Positions 11,313-56,460 of a DNA stretch of 64,000 nucleotides are shown one piece after another; the stretch's first letter is position 1; every line of letters begins with the position of its first letter. Position numbers and translations under genes: made by a program. The stretch lies in the IMG/VR virus record IMGVR_UViG_3300011113_000649, positions 41,554 through 105,553 of that record. One strand, written 5' to 3'. The notes beneath the pieces are model-generated. The model did no database searches, was not told the DNA's origin, and was given only the letters and a program-made list of their open reading frames with translations. This stretch comes from a virus.

Positions 11313-11466
11313 CTTGTTTTCTCCATCTTGGACGCCGTTTTTTATCTGGTTTGGGAAAATCTATTTCTTCTACGCTTTTTGGTGACAAGATTTTTATTAA
11401 ACTTAATATAAAACTAGAAATAATACTTAATAGTCTATTCAGAACGATCTTATCAATTATTTTCAT
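11305..11466 (-). CDS. Micro-gene product (53 aa) after cysteine peptidase
   Basis: The frame starts at an ATG overlapping the peptidase stop (ATGA) and ends inside the start of the next gene, so coupling is strong. The first 30 residues are amphipathic to hydrophobic (NRLLSIISSFILSLIKIL) and the tail is very basic (KKRRPRWRK). It may attach to the membrane. No family is known. Confidence 0.6.
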   Translation of the reverse strand: MKIIDKIVLNRLLSIISSFILSLIKILSPKSVEEIDFPKPDKKRRPRWRKQDE

Positions 11467-12389
11467 AAATAATCCTCAAAACCATAAGAGGGAAGTTTTT
11501 GAACAGGAAACCCATCAAAGTTGCTAAACGCATAAGCGCCATTTTGTTTAAGCATCCCTGCTGCTGTATCTGAATCAATTAAAAACGAACCATCTGGTAT
11601 TTTACCCCACGCTGGATGACCACCATCATTCCATTTACCCCAACTGTTTTGAATTAGAAATGCTAGTTCGCCATTAGTATCATCACAAGCTATCCAGGCC
11701 ATAGCATGGGCCCAACTTCCACTGACTTTTGCGAAACCCTTACTATCTCTTTTGTTACTAAATCCATAACTAGAACATACGGATAAGCCATATCCATTAG
11801 CTAAAGCATCTCTAGCTTCTTCTATAGTCGTAACCAAACTAACAGTTTTAATTTGATGGTCATTAGCTAAGTCTATAACCTTGTCAGGCAATCCTCTAGC
11901 ACCCCAACCTGCACCAAGATTTCCATTATATTTAGTAAAGTCAGCAACACCCCTATAGTCTTTTCTAACTAGAACCCCACCACTCTGGCTAACGAATGTA
12001 GCAGCTCTAGAGCAGCTCATGCCTTGTCCTCCGTGACCACGAGCGCCATAAATTCCTTCGGTTGCTCCTCGCGCTACCCAACTCTCTTTGTCTCTATGTA
12101 CATCAATTTCTACGGCTCTACTCACGTCTAAAGCATTTCGTGTTGCATGAGACACACAATCTCCAGTAGTTTGTCTTTCATTATAAGGGTTTTTATCAAA
12201 CTTTAAAACACTTTTATATGGGATGCTGAGTTTGCCTTTACCACTATTTTTTATTTTTTTAGCGCCGTCAGCAAAATATGCATATTTAGAACTCTCCATA
12301 AGTTCATCAAACATGTGTTGCTCCCACAAGCAACCCTGAAATCCTTTTTTATAATTTAGATAAAGATCATTTGGAGAAAATTTAGACAT
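11463..12389 (-). CDS. Papain-like (C1 family) cysteine peptidase
   Basis: This protein has the C1 peptidase triad: Cys78 in QTTGDCVSHA, His228 in GSWAHAMAW and Asn248 in IQNSWGKW, with a Gln before the Cys that can form the oxyanion hole. At 308 aa it lacks the classical propeptide and signal peptide, so it acts in the cell or in the virion. It heads the block of small membrane proteins; a role in virion maturation or lysis is inference. Residues 120-130 add an odd GGQGMSCSR loop. Confidence 0.82.
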   Translation of the reverse strand: MSKFSPNDLYLNYKKGFQGCLWEQHMFDELMESSKYAYFADGAKKIKNSGKGKLSIPYKSVLKFDKNPYNERQTTGDCVSHATRNALDVSRAVEIDVHRDKESWVARGATEGIYGARGHGGQGMSCSRAATFVSQSGGVLVRKDYRGVADFTKYNGNLGAGWGARGLPDKVIDLANDHQIKTVSLVTTIEEARDALANGYGLSVCSSYGFSNKRDSKGFAKVSGSWAHAMAWIACDDTNGELAFLIQNSWGKWNDGGHPAWGKIPDGSFLIDSDTAAGMLKQNGAYAFSNFDGFPVQKLPSYGFEDYL

Positions 12390-43485: not shown

Positions 43486-44106
43486 TTATTTATCAGATTT
43501 TTTAAGATTATCTATAGCCCATAGTGGTTGCAAATTACTATAATGAAAACATTTTTTCTGTTCTTCTATTTTTGTTAGATCAAAACTAGCACAAGGCTTT
43601 ATATGGTCTATATGCCATTTTCCATAGTTATCCCAATTCATACCATCGACAAAAAGATTCTCTAAATATAGTTTTAGATAGTCCCAAGAACAACCAGTTA
43701 AATCATATGATGTGCTATTTTTTGATCCTCGTATTAAAGCCATTCTAATACGATTACTAATAATTGTTCTTAATCTAAATTGAATATTCTTTTTTCTTTT
43801 AAGTCTGCGTTGTTTATTAATTTTATCTCTGTATTTTTCTCTATATTTTTTAGCATTTATTGAAATTTTATCTGGATTATTTTTTCCCCACAGTTTTCTA
43901 TGTTCATTAAGACAATCTCTATTTTTCTCACGATATGCCTTTTGTTGTTGCTTTATTTTCTTTTTATTCTTTTGCCTTCTAATCTGATTGTATACTTTAT
44001 GACAAAGTTTACAGTATGGGGATTTTCCATCTTTTGATGCTTTTTGACTATGGAAATGATCGATTTTTTGTTTTTTATTGCATTTTATACATTGTTTTAT
44101 TTTCAT
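43486..44106 (-). CDS. HNH homing-type endonuclease (paralogue 1 of 3)
   Basis: This 206-aa protein has an N-terminal zinc finger (CIKCNKKQKI ... YCKLCHK). It has a lysine-rich helical linker, the DLTGCSWDYLKLYLENLF segment, and the nuclease core WHIDHIKPCASFDL to HYSNLQPLWAIDN. It is a paralogue of the two plus-strand endonucleases at 44977 and 55822. Such genes are usually selfish insertions. The shared TTGGTGTAT element lies about 24 nt upstream. Confidence 0.85.
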   Translation of the reverse strand: MKIKQCIKCNKKQKIDHFHSQKASKDGKSPYCKLCHKVYNQIRRQKNKKKIKQQQKAYREKNRDCLNEHRKLWGKNNPDKISINAKKYREKYRDKINKQRRLKRKKNIQFRLRTIISNRIRMALIRGSKNSTSYDLTGCSWDYLKLYLENLFVDGMNWDNYGKWHIDHIKPCASFDLTKIEEQKKCFHYSNLQPLWAIDNLKKSDK

Positions 44107-44146: not shown

Positions 44147-44848
44147 CTAATTTTCAAAAACGTATGACCAATACCTAGAATCTGTTTTATTTTGCTTGGC
44201 ATCCCAAAATATGCACCTAGCAATATATGCAGGAACGCCTAGTTTACCACAATTAACACTCCAGTGCCTTTCCATCTTTTTATATTGATCAAGACCTTTT
44301 TTTGATTGATATGTCAGTGTTTTCATACCATACAATTCCAACATATGAGTGTCTCCACAAAAAACTCTGCACTCATTAGGGTGACACTGTTCCAAAGCAA
44401 ACGAAACTTTAGCGGTTCCTAGACCAGAGATATTATTAACAATCTGATCTCTTTTCTTTACATGATACTTTTTACTGGTTAGATAAAATTGCTTAGGATC
44501 TTGCCAGAATTTATCCTTAAACTGCCAAATAAATTTTGTACGATTATTATATAGTCCGCATCCACTATTCTTGATTTTTTCTCTAAGCAGTTCTTTATTG
44601 TCGATCCAATCATTGAAATCTTTGATAGCATTGTAGCCATTAACATTACTTTTCCATGTTGTATGAACACTCATAAAACTAAACAAATATCGTCGGAAAA
44701 TATCTTCCACATTTTGAGGACGAACACCCTCCCAGTATTCTTTATATGCTACCACCTTATCTCGCGGAAAAGTAGCAAAAAAAGTATCGGCCTCGCTTTT
44801 GTCAAGAATAGTATTCTGAATAGGAATTACTGTGTTTTCAACAATCAT
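44147..44848 (-). CDS. HhH-GPD-like DNA glycosylase-type protein
   Basis: The ATG at 44848 follows TTGGAGACTACC. In the 233-aa product, residues 130-175 look like a helix-hairpin-helix followed by the conserved Asp (VNNISGLGTAKVSFALEQC, then FCGDTHMLELYG). This is like endonuclease III/HhH-GPD glycosylases. No iron-sulfur cysteine cluster is apparent. It may be a base-excision enzyme; the substrate is unknown. It has its own strong promoter. Confidence 0.5.
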   Translation of the reverse strand: MIVENTVIPIQNTILDKSEADTFFATFPRDKVVAYKEYWEGVRPQNVEDIFRRYLFSFMSVHTTWKSNVNGYNAIKDFNDWIDNKELLREKIKNSGCGLYNNRTKFIWQFKDKFWQDPKQFYLTSKKYHVKKRDQIVNNISGLGTAKVSFALEQCHPNECRVFCGDTHMLELYGMKTLTYQSKKGLDQYKKMERHWSVNCGKLGVPAYIARCIFWDAKQNKTDSRYWSYVFEN

Positions 44849-44873
44849 GGTAGTCTCCAATGGGTATGCTACG

Positions 44874-44976: not shown

Positions 44977-45615
44977 ATGAAAAAACAATGTAGTGAATGT
45001 GGTAAATATAAAATTGCTAATAATAAAAATTTCCATAAAAGCAAACATCATAAATATGGACTTCATCCGTACTGTAAGGTATGTCAGAAATCTAAAGACA
45101 AAAAAAGATATAAAAAAAACGGCGATAAAATACGCAACAGAGTTAGACAAAGAACTAAAGATTATCCAGAAAAATTAAAAGCAGAACGTAGGGCATATTA
45201 TCGTAAAAATAAAAGTAAATTACTCAAACAATGTAAAGAATACGCTCAAAGACCAGAGAGAAAAAAAAGAATGAGAGAAATACATCAACATAGAATGGAA
45301 AATGATATTTTGTATAAATTAAGATTTGTGTTAAGATCAAGAATAAGTAAAGCGTTTAAAAGAAAAACTGAAAAAAGTAGAGATATTTTAGGTTGTTCTA
45401 TTGAAGAAGTTCGTAAACATTTAGAAAACCAATTCACCGAAAAAATGTCCTGGGATAATCATGGAACTTATTGGGAAATAGACCATATAATACCTCTCGC
45501 ATCTGCCACAGATCAAAAAACTCTTAGAAAATTATGTCACTATTCCAATCTACAGCCTTTGGAGGCTAGTAAAAATAGAATAAAAGGTTCTAGATTAGAT
45601 TGGACAAATATTTAA
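44977..45615 (+). CDS. HNH homing-type endonuclease (paralogue 2 of 3), plus strand
   Basis: This is one of only two plus-strand genes. The 212-aa protein has CSECGKYKIA ... YCKVCQK (zinc finger). It then has a long Lys/Arg-rich linker, ILGCSIEEVRKHLENQF, and the core YWEIDHIIPLASATDQ to HYSNLQPLEASKN. The SD is AAGGAG. It ends directly at the stop of the ligase C-gene. The opposite orientation and exact fit between genes indicate a mobile insertion. Confidence 0.88.
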   Translation: MKKQCSECGKYKIANNKNFHKSKHHKYGLHPYCKVCQKSKDKKRYKKNGDKIRNRVRQRTKDYPEKLKAERRAYYRKNKSKLLKQCKEYAQRPERKKRMREIHQHRMENDILYKLRFVLRSRISKAFKRKTEKSRDILGCSIEEVRKHLENQFTEKMSWDNHGTYWEIDHIIPLASATDQKTLRKLCHYSNLQPLEASKNRIKGSRLDWTNI

Positions 45616-46533
45616 TTAAGTATCTCTTTTTTCTCCATAAAGATATTTAAAGGTCGGAAAACGAAGACTTAGATTTCCGTCTTGGTTCTTCGTTTCTTCA
45701 AAATATTGTACCAAAATTTGCTTACCTAAAATCTTACAAGGATTACAATAAAACTCTTGTCGTTGATCAATAGTAAAACCACTACCAACTCTAACAGTAT
45801 GACCCTTATGCTTGATCATAACGCAACTTAGCATAGTTTCTTCATGCTCCTTGCCATTTAACACATACCTAAACGGCCCCATTTCTGTGTCTACTACTTC
45901 ATATTCATCATCAAAAAACTTCTTCACCTTTAGCAAATCTTTGCTTCGCTTGCCCTTATATGGTTCATCTGCTCGTAGCATAACTCCTTCCCAAAAATTA
46001 TCTGCTGCTTCTTTAACCCATTCTTGAAAATGTTCATCATTATGAATCAACTCTTGCTCCAAGACAGTCAAGCATGGACACTCATTGGGTTGCATAATGG
46101 CACACAGATGAGCGTATCGAATAGAATATGGTCGATTGCTTTGTCCTTTTTTGCTGTAAAATTCATCAATAGTAATTATATCGAAAATCTTAAATGACGG
46201 ATTAGGAATAGTATGATCCTTCTTGCGAAGTTCTTTCATAACTCCTTGAAAATCTTCATTACCATCTTCATCTACTAGACAAAGTTCTCCATCAAGAACT
46301 ACGTTAGAAATACCAAGAGCTTTAATCCCATCCCTAACAATATTAAGAGTATCAAAAATTTTTCCTGTGCGGGAATAGAAGGTAGTATCGCCATTAGTAT
46401 CAACAATACCAACACATCTACAATTGTGTTTGAGTATACCATTAGCAAAAAAATTAGCATTATCTGCAACTTCTAGTTCATATTTATATTTTGATTCAAT
46501 TTTTTCTATTGACTTAATTTTAACAGTTTGCAT
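45616..46533 (-). CDS. ATP-dependent DNA ligase, C-part, preceded by split-intein C-fragment
   Basis: Residues 1-37 form an intein C-fragment: the block ending FFANGILKHN, followed by Cys+1, is the canonical HN|C splice junction. The extein (268 aa) continues CRCVGIVDTNGDTTFYSRTG and has ligase motifs III (VVLDGEL), IV (FWEGVMLRAD) and V (LLKVKKF), then the OB-fold end. The nucleotidyl-accepting Lys is not here; it lies in the gene at 47467-48285. Trans-splicing is needed to make an active enzyme of about 435 aa. Confidence 0.92.
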   Translation of the reverse strand: MQTVKIKSIEKIESKYKYELEVADNANFFANGILKHNCRCVGIVDTNGDTTFYSRTGKIFDTLNIVRDGIKALGISNVVLDGELCLVDEDGNEDFQGVMKELRKKDHTIPNPSFKIFDIITIDEFYSKKGQSNRPYSIRYAHLCAIMQPNECPCLTVLEQELIHNDEHFQEWVKEAADNFWEGVMLRADEPYKGKRSKDLLKVKKFFDDEYEVVDTEMGPFRYVLNGKEHEETMLSCVMIKHKGHTVRVGSGFTIDQRQEFYCNPCKILGKQILVQYFEETKNQDGNLSLRFPTFKYLYGEKRDT

Positions 46534-47408
46534 AATCTAGTCTCAATTTTGTTAATATTTTTCTGTATGTCCGATGCCCATAATAGGTATACCTTGTAGC
46601 CAAAACTTTTCAAGTGGTTGACGCGAATTTTATCTTTTTTCCAAACATCTTTGGCACATAATTCTCCTGCCCATGTTATGATTATATCATTTGGTTTATA
46701 TTTTCTAGGATTGGCATGAAATGTATCTCCATAAATTTCGATAATAATCTTTTTTTGTTCTATAATTATATCTGGTCGAGGATTATATATTTTTTTTAAG
46801 GCTTTGTTGTATCTATTAAACTGTATACCATCAATATTTTCACTTATATAGATTATATTGTATTTATCTAATATATTTTCTACTCTTTGGTGTGGTATAG
46901 ATTTTTTACCATTATTTCTTCTATAGCTTGGCAAATCAACCGGATTTTCCACTCCATATTTTTTAATAAGTGTTTGTTTAGTTTTTTCTTTAACGCTTTC
47001 TAATTGAAAAACATTAGTAATTCCTTTACCATATTTTTGTTCTATGGTTTTCTGGGTTTGCTTAGATTGAAAATTATTCTTATAACCATAATTTCTTAAA
47101 TTAGTTTCTATTCTTTTTTGTTTAGTATTCGGATTATTTGCTGCCTCTTTGAGGGTCTGTGTTTTAATGCCTAGCTCTTTGCATCTAGTAATTATATGCT
47201 TAGTTTTAATTTTAGCATTGTTTATCTCTAATTCTAGCTGATAGCAAGACTTGCCTAACTTAATTATATTATCTTTTAGGTATTTTTTAGTTAAAATTTT
47301 ATTTCTATAATTAGTTATATATTGAACATAATTTTTACATTTCGCTTGATGCCCATATAATTGTTGCTTAGTCTTTAATCCGGCCTTATTGCAATATTGA
47401 CATTTCAT
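46506..47408 (-). CDS. Vsr-like (EDxHD/I-Bth0305I-type) homing endonuclease
   Basis: This 300-aa protein has an N-terminal C2-type zinc finger (CQYCNKAGLKTKQQLYGHQ), then several NUMOD-like DNA-binding helices (NLRNYGYKNNFQS, KYGVENPVDLPSY). The C-terminal nuclease domain has RPDIIIEQKKIIIEIYGDTF-H and a WKKDKIRVNHLKSFGYKVYL helix-strand, as in Vsr. It sits between the two ligase half-genes and overlaps the second by 28 nt, so it probably spreads the fractured-intein locus. Confidence 0.82.
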   Translation of the reverse strand: MKCQYCNKAGLKTKQQLYGHQAKCKNYVQYITNYRNKILTKKYLKDNIIKLGKSCYQLELEINNAKIKTKHIITRCKELGIKTQTLKEAANNPNTKQKRIETNLRNYGYKNNFQSKQTQKTIEQKYGKGITNVFQLESVKEKTKQTLIKKYGVENPVDLPSYRRNNGKKSIPHQRVENILDKYNIIYISENIDGIQFNRYNKALKKIYNPRPDIIIEQKKIIIEIYGDTFHANPRKYKPNDIIITWAGELCAKDVWKKDKIRVNHLKSFGYKVYLLWASDIQKNINKIETRLCKLLKLSQ

Positions 47409-47466
47409 TTAAAAATTTCCCTTCTGGTATTTAATACACAGATATCGAGAAAGTTGGATGGAAATT

Positions 47467-48285
47467 TCAATCAAAAAGAATTTCTTCACTTCCGTCCAGT
47501 TCATCTACGCGACGATAACACTTGAGTTTAGGAATATATACTGTGTCATTACCAGTAATATTAAGAGTAATGCCATTTTCTAAAGTAATTTTATACCATT
47601 GTGTAGGCTTGGTTTCAGAAATATCATGAGCATTACTCATATGATTAATAATTGGTTTATACTCAATTTGATTAGTTTTATGATTAAAAGACTTAATATT
47701 CCCATTAATCTTATGCTCCACAACATAGCCAATAGGCAATACAACACCGGTATCAAACTCTACCAGAGTGTCATAATCTACACAGCCATCAATCTTTCTG
47801 CTAACATACCAACCGTCCTCCCAGTCTACAAGTTTAGGTTCATATTTATCAGCAAGAGCAACACTGAATTCTGGAATATGATCTTTGATTGCTTTGTTAA
47901 TAATCTTATCGCCAGCACGGGTTTTCAAATCCTTGTCGATAATACAATGGATCAAATCCTCATGGTGCGGATAAGTGTCAACAAAAGAATTAACCGCACC
48001 AATAGCGTCGTGACCAGTAATCTTGCGACTCTTTAGATCATCAAGAAGATCAAAAATATTATCATATCTTATTCCACGAAGATGACTTTTCTTTTTCAAA
48101 TTATCGCTTGTGACATTATATTGCCACATTGGATGATAAGTATACAGAAAAATATTCTTAGCAAAAGTTGCTGATGCTGTTTGGTGACAGCAATAGTCTA
48201 CAATAATACCTTCTTTATCCTTAGTGCTGCTAGTAGCCCTAAGATCACGAACCATTCCCCAAACATAATCAAAATCGTGAGTCAT
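47467..48285 (-). CDS. ATP-dependent DNA ligase, N-part, fused to split-intein N-fragment
   Basis: The ATG at 48285 follows CAGGAGAC. The N-extein of 167 aa ends with SRKIDG, the ligase motif I with its adenylated lysine. The last 105 aa form an intein N-fragment starting CVDYDTLVEFDTGVV, continuing KPTQWYKITLENGITLNITG and ending YRRVDELDGSEEILFD. The usual block B His is replaced (TGND). The frame then stops. The other half is encoded at 45616-46533. Confidence 0.92.
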   Translation of the reverse strand: MTHDFDYVWGMVRDLRATSSTKDKEGIIVDYCCHQTASATFAKNIFLYTYHPMWQYNVTSDNLKKKSHLRGIRYDNIFDLLDDLKSRKITGHDAIGAVNSFVDTYPHHEDLIHCIIDKDLKTRAGDKIINKAIKDHIPEFSVALADKYEPKLVDWEDGWYVSRKIDGCVDYDTLVEFDTGVVLPIGYVVEHKINGNIKSFNHKTNQIEYKPIINHMSNAHDISETKPTQWYKITLENGITLNITGNDTVYIPKLKCYRRVDELDGSEEILFD

Positions 48286-48310: not shown

Positions 48311-48339
48311 AGTATAACACACTCCAAAGCGTCTGTCAA
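48311..48339 (-). promoter_or_regulatory. Sigma-70-like promoter of ligase N-gene
   Basis: TTGACA (48339-48334), a 17-nt spacer and TATACT (48316-48311) are visible, giving a leader of about 20 nt with a strong SD. The spacer lacks the CGATA motif. Confidence 0.8.
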
Positions 48340-48622: not shown

Positions 48623-49390
48623 TTATTTAACTGATTTATCTAACTTAGTTTTAGATTCATTTATCCATTCCAAAAAATTATATATTCTAGTATGACCAGA
48701 TTCTTCTCCATACTTAGACATCGGTGATCTTCCAATCGTCATAATACAAGAATTTATTCCAGCTAGTTTTCCATCTATAAATAAACCACCACCACTATCT
48801 CCACTACATATCATATACTCTAAAGAAGTATGACTTTTACTTTCGGGCCAAGAGGGAGAACAAATTAATAAATCTTTATGTATATCATCTACAGTGTTTG
48901 AGCCTGCTCTTAATTTATTATCTGATTTACTAATACCAGTATTGAAATTTCCTGTTAATCCCCAACCCGCTATTGATGCTAATTTTCCACTTTCTTTGCC
49001 TTCTCTATATAAAGGAGGGTAGTTTTTTAAATTAAAATCTTTTTTAGAATATCCTATGGCGATATCTGCAGTTCCAACTTTTGTTTTAAAATCTTCATGA
49101 ATAATTATATTATCTAGTAAAAATTTTTCTTCATTAATTTTTATATAGCAAATTTTGTAACCTTTTACAACATGTGCTGCGGTAAGCACAAAATGTTTTT
49201 CTATAACAACACCAGACGCACAAAATACAGTACCATCTTCATATGTACCATATACTTGTACTACGCAATAGAATTTAGAGCCAAAATCTAAATACTCTTT
49301 ATCTGGTATGTTAGGATCTATCGTTCCTGAATAAGATAGTGAAGTCAATCCGAATAAAAATAACAAAAGTAATCTTTTAAAGATAAGCAT
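48623..49390 (-). CDS. Exported trypsin-like serine protease
   Basis: A signal peptide (LLLLFLFGLTSLSYSG) precedes an S1 chymotrypsin fold. It has His73 in LTAAHVV, Asp109 in GTADIAIGY, and Ser199 in CSGDSGGGLF, with the final helix ending in LEWINES. The product (255 aa) would be secreted to the periplasm or outside. An SD (AAGGAGG) sits in the loop of an 8-bp inverted repeat. A deleted copy is at 31252-31462. Confidence 0.88.
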   Translation of the reverse strand: MLIFKRLLLLFLFGLTSLSYSGTIDPNIPDKEYLDFGSKFYCVVQVYGTYEDGTVFCASGVVIEKHFVLTAAHVVKGYKICYIKINEEKFLLDNIIIHEDFKTKVGTADIAIGYSKKDFNLKNYPPLYREGKESGKLASIAGWGLTGNFNTGISKSDNKLRAGSNTVDDIHKDLLICSPSWPESKSHTSLEYMICSGDSGGGLFIDGKLAGINSCIMTIGRSPMSKYGEESGHTRIYNFLEWINESKTKLDKSVK

Positions 49391-49429: not shown

Positions 49430-49783
49430 CTATTTTATTAGTTTTCTGTTTCTAACCAAGATTAGATAATTCAATGCTTTAACTACACCTTCCAAATTAT
49501 CTCCTAATTTTCCTAACCCCTCATTACATTTACTACACAACCAACCCCTAAAACTATCGTCACTATGATTATGATCTAAACACCATTTGAAAGGAACTTT
49601 TCCACAACATTCGCATACTTCTGGTTTTGATGGAGCCTTTTTATGAAGTTTACTTCTTATCTTAGAATGTTTTTTGACGCATTTTCTACATCTACTATCT
49701 AGATTATCTTTATACATACTGTGCTTAGGAAAACTTTTGAAGTTTTTTCGTTCGTGACAGTATGCACAAATTTTTCTAGGCAT
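49430..49783 (-). CDS. Recombination endonuclease VII-like (His-Me/HNH) protein
   Basis: This 117-aa protein shows an N-terminal cysteine pair (CAYCHERK ... CRKCVKKH) and the endonuclease VII core CECCGKVPFKWCLDHNHSDD, then FRGWLCSKCNEGLGKLGDN. Members resolve DNA junctions or act as homing nucleases. It is preceded by AGGAGAAT. Its position next to the tmRNA may reflect insertion. Confidence 0.88.
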   Translation of the reverse strand: MPRKICAYCHERKNFKSFPKHSMYKDNLDSRCRKCVKKHSKIRSKLHKKAPSKPEVCECCGKVPFKWCLDHNHSDDSFRGWLCSKCNEGLGKLGDNLEGVVKALNYLILVRNRKLIK

Positions 49784-49828: not shown

Positions 49829-50184
49829 TGGAGGCGAGGGAAATCGAATCCCTGTCCTATCATATTTCAAATTATATATTCTACAAGTTTATTTTATTCA
49901 TAAATTAAATAGGATTACAGAACAAACAAGATTAATTCCTATCTTATCGACTTCTCTTAACCTGCAACCCGTCGAACATTGTAGGTGCAGAGGGATTTAA
50001 CGACAGACTTTTGATCCCTACCCTCATTCGGTATCGCAGTCTGTTACTGCCCTTTTTTGTCAGGCAGCAAGTGCTAACTGAGTTTCGCCAGTTAAAGCGT
50101 TTAATCGACTTTTAAAGTGGCCTGTCGATCAACCACTACTTGCTAATATAATCTTCTTTATGTAGTCGAAACCTTTACGCCCCC
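49829..50184 (-). ncRNA. ssrA: Phage-encoded tmRNA (ssrA-like)
   Basis: The 5' end GGGGGCGTAAAGGTTTCGAC and the 3' T-arm GGACAGGGATTCGATTTCCC then CGCCTCC-A fold into the tRNA-like domain; acceptor GGGGGCG pairs with CGCCTCC. Within about 356 nt a short frame ends ...GCA CTT GCT GCC TGA (tag ALTGETQLALAA at 50098-50060), with the classic ALAA end. Stalled ribosomes would add this degradation tag. The gene overlaps the end of the upstream ORF by 1 nt. CCA is not encoded. Confidence 0.93.
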
Positions 50185-50396: not shown

Positions 50397-50418
50397 AATA
50401 TGAAAACCTCTGCGTTAA

Positions 50419-50492
50419 TAGGGTGTGTAGGAGTCGAACCTACCTTTTGAATACCTTATAAGAGTATTTGCAACAACCGGCTGCAACACCCC
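50419..50492 (-). tRNA. tRNA-Ile (anticodon UAU)
   Basis: The acceptor GGGGTGT pairs with ACACCCT. The D-arm region GCAGCCGGTTGTTGC and anticodon stem ATACT/GGTAT surround loop CTTATAA (anticodon UAU). The T-arm is GTAGG TTCGACT CCTAC. The body resembles phage tRNA-Met genes except for the anticodon. It would read AUA directly. A consensus promoter lies 9 nt upstream. Confidence 0.82.
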
Positions 50493-50500
50493 ATTTTTAT

Positions 50501-55821: not shown

Positions 55822-56460
55822 ATGTCTAAAAAAATATGCAGTTTATGTAAAAAAGGGAAAACATTTTCAAAATTTTATCATAAAAAAGGTGGTGCTTTTG
55901 GATTGGATTCAAAATGTAAAGATTGTGTAGCATTATATCATAAAAAATATTTTCAAAAAAACAAGTCAGAAATTTTGTTAAACCGCCAAAATTATATGGT
56001 GGAGTATAGAGAATCAAATAAAGAAAAAATTTCAGAATATAATAAAAAATACTATGACCAAAATAGAAAACAAATACTTAAACATAAAAAATCTAAAGAA
56101 TATCGAAAACATTCTAGAAGATATGAAAAAAATAAAAGAAAAAACGATATATCATTTAGAATTATGGGCAGTCTAAGAAGCAGGTTAAATTTGGCTATAA
56201 AAAATAATACAAAGCATGGAAAAACAAAAGACTTAATAGGTTGTAGTATTGATTTTTTAAAAGAATATTTATCGAATATGTTTCAAGAAGGAATGAGTTG
56301 GAATAATTATGGTAAAAATGGCTGGCATATAGACCATATCATGCCTTGTTCAAGTTTTGATTTAACCATATTAGAACAACAAAAATTATGTTTTCATTAT
56401 ACTAATTTACAACCTTTATGGGCAAAAGAAAATATCAGCAAATCAAATAAAATTTTATAG
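55822..56460 (+). CDS. HNH homing-type endonuclease (paralogue 3 of 3), plus strand
   Basis: This 212-aa protein is a paralogue of those at 43486 and 44977: CSLCKKGKTFSKF (zinc finger), a Lys/Asn/Tyr-rich linker, DLIGCSIDFLKEYLSNMF, and WHIDHIMPCSSFDLT to HYTNLQPLWAKEN. It follows AAAGGAGT. It lies antisense between the 64-aa gene and thyX, overlapping the thyX stop by 6 nt. Confidence 0.88.
   Translation: MSKKICSLCKKGKTFSKFYHKKGGAFGLDSKCKDCVALYHKKYFQKNKSEILLNRQNYMVEYRESNKEKISEYNKKYYDQNRKQILKHKKSKEYRKHSRRYEKNKRKNDISFRIMGSLRSRLNLAIKNNTKHGKTKDLIGCSIDFLKEYLSNMFQEGMSWNNYGKNGWHIDHIMPCSSFDLTILEQQKLCFHYTNLQPLWAKENISKSNKIL

What the first reader, a model, noticed from the sequence alone, without database searches (positions are those of the whole stretch)
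45616..48285. DNA ligase encoded as two genes joined by a split intein (fractured gene)
The N-gene ends its extein at SRKIDG, the adenylation-lysine motif I, and then runs 105 aa into an intein N-fragment starting CVDYDTLVEF. The C-gene begins with 37 aa ending FFANGILKHN, then Cys+1, and the rest of the ligase (motifs III, IV, V). Neither part alone can ligate: the catalytic lysine is in one and the other motifs in the second. Removing both intein parts gives KIDG-CRCVG, a normal ligase motif. Published 'fractured genes' (Dassa and colleagues, 2009) show this arrangement in phage helicase, NrdJ and IMPDH genes. Here those three genes are intact and the ligase is the split one. The small N- and C-parts resemble very fast split inteins of the gp41-1/NrdJ-1 type.
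Basis: partly seen in the sequence, partly recalled or inferred. Interest (0 to 1): 0.92.

Follow-up and report, generated by a model that had tools for sequence, protein, structure and literature searches.

The report
Phage DNA ligase split by intein
A bacterial virus carries its DNA-joining enzyme as two genes whose protein products should be stitched together by a split self-splicing element, with the gene for that element's DNA-cutting 'spreader' enzyme lodged between them; the arrangement is a known type, but this element belongs to a family that keeps invading the same active-site spot of phage ligases and lacks a catalytic residue long thought nearly indispensable.

Summary
Confirmed, with one part missed. 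On the minus strand a T4-like ATP-dependent DNA ligase is broken after motif I (KIDG|C). The endonuclease is a distant EDxHD/Vsr type (best fold match I-Bth0305I). This is the published 'fractured gene' arrangement.

Six other viral contigs carry the same intein in relatives of this ligase; 74 relatives are uninterrupted at exactly this point. Occupied ligases sit on separate tree branches, and one pair shares a ~92%-identical insert between much more divergent flanks, so the element is mobile. Intein, endonuclease and both ligase halves are under purifying selection.

New: relatives of this intein sit at or beside motif I in one DNA-ligase and three RNA-ligase families. In two clades the block B histidine, reported as the most conserved intein residue, is Asp (7 DNA-ligase alleles) or Asn (9 RNA-ligase alleles). 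The +1 Cys comes with the element: 63 empty alleles have Ala/Val. 'Ultrafast gp41-1/NrdJ-1-like' is not supported. Trans-splicing and target cutting are inferred. Dassa 2009 could not be read, so a ligase locus may already be listed there.

The parts
47785..48285 (-). N-extein: DNA ligase residues 1-167, ending SRKIDG (motif I with the adenylated lysine)
47470..47784 (-). IntN, 105 aa, Cys1, block B TGND (no His)
47467..47469 (-). stop codon of the N-gene
47409..47466 (-). spacer between IntN and the endonuclease gene, partly conserved in relatives, with a ribosome-binding-like AAGGGA / AGGAG stretch
46506..47408 (-). homing endonuclease gene, 300 aa; C-terminal EDxHD/Vsr-type nuclease domain; overlaps the C-gene start by 28 nt
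46423..46533 (-). IntC, 37 aa, ends HN; block F Glu and Ala instead of Asp and His
45619..46422 (-). C-extein: Cys+1 and ligase residues 168-435 (motifs III-V and OB domain)
48311..48339 (-). candidate extended -10 promoter (TTGACA-17-TATACT) upstream of the N-gene; consensus match only, total matches in the region not above chance

Best explanation
A mobile 'fractured gene'. A phage ATP-dependent DNA ligase is interrupted at its catalytic motif I by a split intein that carries a free-standing EDxHD/Vsr-type homing endonuclease gene between its halves. Expected sequence: the two precursors are made separately; IntN and IntC associate; Cys1 attacks at Gly(-1); the chain moves to Cys+1; the intein's last Asn cyclises; the product is a 435-aa ligase with KIDG-CRC at motif I. 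At DNA level the endonuclease is expected to cut uninterrupted ligase alleles near the motif I codons during co-infection, and repair copies the whole cassette plus the Cys+1 codon into them. The intein works like a class 1 intein but has Asp instead of the block B His, so its first acyl shift must be activated another way. Shown here: anatomy, exact empty sites, recurrent occupation, horizontal transfer, purifying selection, nuclease-fold similarity, loss of the His in two clades. Inferred: trans-splicing, cutting of the target, and the compensating chemistry.
For: Anatomy and domains. Same cassette at the same codon in L001-L004 (1361-1363 bp) and L109; intein with an endonuclease relic in L136; 74 exact empty sites. 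In the ligase tree the four full-length occupied alleles need four separate changes. L001/L003: insert bins 85-98% nucleotide identity, IntN 98% aa, against a ligase N part of 76% aa and flank bins averaging about 70%. Cys+1 in every occupied allele, Ala/Val in all 63 full-length empty alleles. dN/dS 0.03-0.15 for IntN, 0.06-0.21 for the endonuclease; ligase halves of split alleles 0.06-0.15, close to 0.02-0.13 between intact alleles. Endonuclease fold. Related split inteins at or beside motif I in one DNA-ligase and three RNA-ligase PHROG families; Asp clade support 100/98, Asn clade 95/97.
Against: No experiment shows splicing or cutting. The intein lacks HisB:10 and has Glu at F:4 and Ala at F:13; Ala in place of HisB:10 abolishes trans-splicing in AceL NrdHF (PMC7891396). 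No compensating residue was identified. Identity of the endonuclease to characterised enzymes is low (about 21% to I-Bth0305I), its profile match to 3r3p/Vsr is marginal (E 0.03-0.16) and its model is of modest confidence (mean pLDDT 60). Its target was not tested.
Confidence: 0.88

Rival explanations
1. The intein has lost splicing. The ligase is either dead or works by non-covalent assembly of the two halves through the still-associating IntN and IntC.
For: Three assisting residues (B:10, F:4, F:13) differ from the usual ones.
Against: Cys1, block B Thr, final HN and Cys+1 are invariant; IntN dN/dS 0.03-0.15; ligase halves as constrained as intact ones; the His-less state persists in two clades with 16 distinct alleles. 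The break lies inside motif I, where unspliced intein would sit next to the catalytic lysine.
Confidence: 0.07
2. Splicing is conditional: slow or triggered (redox, temperature, a partner), so the split intein delays or regulates ligase activity in infection.
For: Unusual catalytic residues would be expected to slow the first step; inteins as sensors are described for other proteins (e.g. PMC6195587 abstract).
Against: No direct evidence; most sister phages do without the intein, so regulation is not generally needed.
Confidence: 0.15
3. The endonuclease gene is an independent free-standing invader of an already split intein, and does not drive the intein's movement.
For: Endonuclease on the opposite strand in L118 and L124, missing in L133, relic in L114 and L136: gene and intein can part.
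Against: Endonucleases related to each other accompany these inteins across DNA and RNA ligases and were found nowhere else in the scans; in the L001/L003 pair intein and endonuclease moved as one block.
Confidence: 0.1
4. Artefact: a frameshift or misassembly of a continuous intein-containing ligase.
For: None beyond the single window.
Against: Six contigs with the full cassette and a seventh with the split intein, separate open frames, overlapping start of the C-gene in all.
Confidence: 0.01

Closest known systems
'Fractured genes' with split inteins and a free-standing endonuclease (Dassa et al. 2009, doi 10.1093/nar/gkp095; paper not readable here)
   Same: Phage enzyme gene broken by a split intein with an endonuclease gene between the halves; a Vsr-related endonuclease family was named there (abstract recalled from memory; title seen in reference lists).
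   Different: Extein is an ATP-dependent DNA ligase at motif I; whether ligases are among that paper's eight enzyme types could not be checked. Block B His missing. Related inteins recur in several ligase families.
NrdJ-1 and gp41-1 split inteins (PDB 8ubs; 6qaz, 6riz)
   Same: Fragment sizes (about 100 + 37-40 aa), split position, Cys1, C-terminal HN.
   Different: About 29% identity to NrdJ-1, E 5e-4 and 0.011; NrdJ-1 has TPDH and a block F His, this one TGND and Ala.
AceL NrdHF split intein (PMC7891396)
   Same: Phage fractured gene with an endonuclease gene in between; unusual catalytic residues.
   Different: Class 3 intein, GIY-YIG endonuclease, block B His retained and essential.
Tko CDC21-1 intein (in PMC4031507, PMC6333167) and PolB16 OarG intein (PMC10189870)
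   Same: Natural loss (CDC21-1) or dispensability (PolB16) of the block B His.
   Different: CDC21-1 uses Lys58 and has Leu at -1, here -1 is Gly. PolB16 is a Ser1 intein that relies on a motif NX His preceded by R/K; no such pair is seen here.
I-Bth0305I (EDxHD homing endonuclease, PDB 3r3p) and Vsr (1vsr, 1cw0)
   Same: Best solved matches of the endonuclease by profile and fold.
   Different: About 21% identity over the nuclease domain; other N-terminal part; sits in a split intein.

Membership tests
Fractured gene (split intein + free-standing endonuclease) | Conserved enzyme coding region broken in two by a split intein | tested here: met
   N-part ends and C-part starts at PHROG 114 position 250
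Fractured gene (split intein + free-standing endonuclease) | Endonuclease gene between the two halves | tested here: met
Fractured gene (split intein + free-standing endonuclease) | Trans-splicing rebuilds the enzyme | not testable with these tools
   inferred from conserved nucleophiles and purifying selection
Class 1 intein | Cys/Ser at position 1, final Asn, Cys/Ser/Thr at +1 | tested here: met
Class 1 intein | Block B TxxH | tested here: not met
   T-G-N-D in all 7 Asp-clade alleles; so it works like class 1 but is not a canonical member
Class 1 intein | Block F Asp (F:4) and His (F:13), the commonest residues | tested here: not met
   Glu and Ala in window and L001-L004
Class 3 intein | Cys at F:4 and no nucleophile at position 1 | tested here: not met
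   Cys1 present, Glu at F:4
gp41-1/NrdJ-1-type ultrafast split intein | Very fast trans-splicing | not testable with these tools
   weak similarity and different catalytic residues
EDxHD/Vsr-type homing endonuclease | EDxHD/Vsr nuclease fold | tested here: met
   Foldseek 3r3p E 4.4e-4, then 1vsr, 1cw0; profile search same order, E 0.03-0.16; model of modest confidence
EDxHD/Vsr-type homing endonuclease | The catalytic residues of the family | tested here: inconclusive
   invariant D213, H231, D254, D259 and others in the five homologs, RPD and H aligned with Vsr; not mapped on a confident model
EDxHD/Vsr-type homing endonuclease | Cuts the uninterrupted allele | not testable with these tools
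   exact empty sites and transfer are consistent
T4-like ATP-dependent DNA ligase | Nucleotidyltransferase and OB domains after joining | tested here: met
   intact homolog L006 matches T4 ligase 6dt1 at E 4e-18

The most novel reading that the evidence does not exclude
A lineage of phage split inteins is specialised on motif I of nucleotidyltransferase-superfamily ligases (DNA ligase and three RNA-ligase families). Two of its clades splice as Cys1 inteins without the block B histidine, with Asp or Asn in its place, by an activation not yet described, and the shared endonuclease family accounts for movement between the matching active-site codons of different ligases.
Probability: 0.6. Interest if true: 0.75.

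Novelty: new variant of a known kind. Interest (0 to 1): 0.62.

Why it matters
The block B histidine was called the most conserved intein residue, with only two natural exceptions in a 2014 review (PMC4031507). Two clades of natural split inteins under purifying selection with Asp or Asn there are ready material to test what that residue does, and may give new orthogonal trans-splicing tools. The locus is also a clean natural experiment on homing: exact empty sites, several independent occupations, a transferred block, and stages in which the endonuclease is intact, inverted, a relic or gone. It shows mobile elements returning to the stretch of a ligase that can change least, its adenylation motif.

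Tried and rejected
Assembly or frameshift artefact: rejected, seven contigs agree. Class 3 or class 2 mechanism: rejected, Cys1 present and F:4 is Glu. Stop-codon recoding in the window: not indicated, TAG ends ordinary genes there. Ser1-type motif NX His as compensator (PMC10189870): no R/K-His pair seen in the Asp-clade alignment. Intein or endonuclease in bacterial genomes: nothing. Close intein relatives in cultured phages: none better than E 3e-3; the annotated 'intein-containing RNA ligase' of phage KLEP7 has its intein at another site, with TPNH; H55 in a Streptococcus phage is a distant TGNH intein at a different site. Sequence search of the endonuclease alone against PDB gave nothing; only the profile did. 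The endonuclease model is weak (pLDDT 60), so its fold match is accepted only because the profile search agrees. Promoter and terminator scan: not above chance. Dassa 2009 not held, so an earlier ligase locus cannot be excluded; searches for ligase inteins found nothing relevant. The His/Asp/Asn tally is shaped by the search patterns (ITGN[NDH], WY[EK][IV][ET]LE), so it is no population estimate; several loci are near-copies of one another.

Full report
OBSERVATION. The window is part of a 105,553-bp virus record. On its minus strand the reported halves are present: a 272-aa protein (48285-47467) of 167 ligase residues ending SRKIDG followed by 105 residues starting CVDYDTLVEF, and a 305-aa protein (46533-45616) of 37 residues ending FFANGILKHN followed by CRCVG and the rest of a ligase. 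PHROG 114 (ATP-dependent DNA ligase) is matched at 98-250 by the first and 250-501 by the second. The joined 142-aa intein passes the Pfam and NCBIfam intein cut-offs. The joined exteins make 435 aa, and an uninterrupted homolog (L006) has the fold of T4-type DNA ligases.

Between the halves lies a 300-aa gene (47408-46506) whose last 28 nt overlap the start of the C-gene. It has a Cys/His-rich N-terminus, a DUF7487-like middle and a C-terminal nuclease domain matched by DUF559, Vsr and PHROG homing endonucleases. A profile of that domain ranks I-Bth0305I (3r3p) first and Vsr next among solved structures, at marginal E-values. The predicted model, of modest confidence, gives the same order by fold (3r3p E 4.4e-4). 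It is most likely an EDxHD/Vsr-type homing endonuclease, and the locus is a three-gene cassette of the 'fractured gene' type.

REPLICATION AND EMPTY SITES. A search of viral contigs with the N-gene returned 80 relatives. Four (L001-L004) carry the same cassette at the same codon, 1361-1363 bp long; 74 are uninterrupted exactly there (many are near-copies, 42 distinct proteins among 67 full-length rows). A more distant phage, L109, has the complete cassette; L136 has the split intein with only a relic of the endonuclease, insert 628 bp. All occupied alleles have Cys at +1, whereas the 63 full-length uninterrupted alleles have Ala (61) or Val (2). So the +1 nucleophile arrives with the element, and no 'Cys but empty' allele, the scar expected of precise loss, was seen.

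MOBILITY AND SELECTION. In the ligase tree the four full-length occupied alleles lie on four branches with empty neighbours; well-supported branches force four changes. L001 and L003 share an insert with 60-nt bins of 85-98% identity (IntN 98% aa, endonuclease 92% aa), while the ligase N part is 76% identical at protein level and its nucleotide bins average about 70%: a transferred block. IntN (dN/dS 0.03-0.15) and the endonuclease (0.06-0.21) are under purifying selection. So are both ligase halves of split alleles (0.06-0.15, against 0.02-0.13 between intact alleles).

THE INTEIN IS ATYPICAL. Block B reads T-G-N-D in place of TxxH in the window, L001-L004, L109 and L136. Block F has Glu for the usual Asp, and Ala (Ser or Glu in L109 and L136) for the usual His. 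Cys1, the block B Thr, the final His-Asn and Cys+1 are kept. A 2014 review calls HisB:10 the most conserved intein residue and lists two exceptions, one a pseudogene (PMC4031507). Ala there abolished splicing of AceL NrdHF (PMC7891396). Bulky residues at -1 can compensate in Ssp DnaB M86 (PMC6333167), but here -1 is Gly. The comparison with ultrafast gp41-1/NrdJ-1 inteins is therefore not supported.

A FAMILY AT LIGASE MOTIF I. Searches with IntC and with broadened IntN alignments found relatives in further viral contigs. Almost all sit at, or two residues after, the KxDG/KxHG of motif I in phage ligases: DNA ligase PHROG 114 (also L114/L140, L142/L143), RNA ligase PHROG 968 (L110, L115, L117, L122-L129, L133), Rnl1-like PHROG 562 (L118, L135, L144) and RNA ligase PHROG 24030 (L132, L134). 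L145 and L147 are at other sites. Block B is TGND in seven DNA-ligase alleles, TGNN or TSNN in nine distinct RNA-ligase alleles, and ends in His in the rest; the Asp clade (100/98) and Asn clade (95/97) are each supported. Related endonucleases lie between the halves in most. They are on the opposite strand in L118 and L124, reduced to relics in L114 and L136, and absent in L133 (insert 510 bp). His, Asp and Asn codons differ by one base, so point changes suffice.

MECHANISM, SHOWN AND INFERRED. Shown: anatomy, exact sites, repeated occupation, transfer, selection, fold similarity, loss of the His. Inferred: association of the halves, acyl shift at Cys1, transfer to Cys+1, Asn cyclisation and ligation to KIDG-CRC; cutting of empty alleles by the endonuclease; and a substitute for HisB:10. 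One half holds the catalytic lysine and the other the remaining motifs, and both stay constrained, so working splicing is much the likeliest reading.

NOVELTY. The arrangement is known. A ligase locus may or may not be in Dassa 2009, which could not be read. Searches of the open library found no ligase split intein. The recurrent motif I family and the two clades without HisB:10 were not described in anything I could search. Rating: new variant of a known kind.

Noticed in passing
window 49829-50184 (-): Phage-encoded tmRNA with tag peptide GETQLALAA (ARAGORN and Rfam RF00023); a tRNA-Ile(tat) lies close by at 50418-50493.
   Followed up: partly
window 43486-44106 (-), 44977-45615 (+), 49430-49783 (-), 55822-56460 (+): Several HNH/endonuclease VII-like free-standing genes; the one at 44977-45615 ends directly against the ligase-C stop, in convergent orientation.
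   Followed up: no
L099:1960-4023, L100:826-2868; window homolog 11463-12389 (-): Two related phages carry a full-length, LAGLIDADG-looking intein in a papain-like protein before the Cys of TGDC|VSHATRNA; the window's homolog is empty. These inteins have ordinary TxxH.
   Followed up: partly
L110:1352-2344 (contig IMGVR_UViG_3300001598_000239): The endonuclease between the RNA-ligase halves is open only if TAG is read as Gln (5 positions), suggesting a stop-recoded phage.
   Followed up: partly
L003:5868-5984: The ligase-C frame of L003 meets a stop after about 32 codons, close to the contig end: sequencing error or decay.
   Followed up: no
L118:4921-6371: IntN of an Rnl1-like RNA ligase seems to carry a one-base frameshift, and its endonuclease lies on the opposite strand.
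   Followed up: no
window 44147-44860 (-) and 48623-49390 (-): An OGG-like 8-oxoguanine glycosylase and a trypsin-like protease lie near the ligase locus.
   Followed up: no
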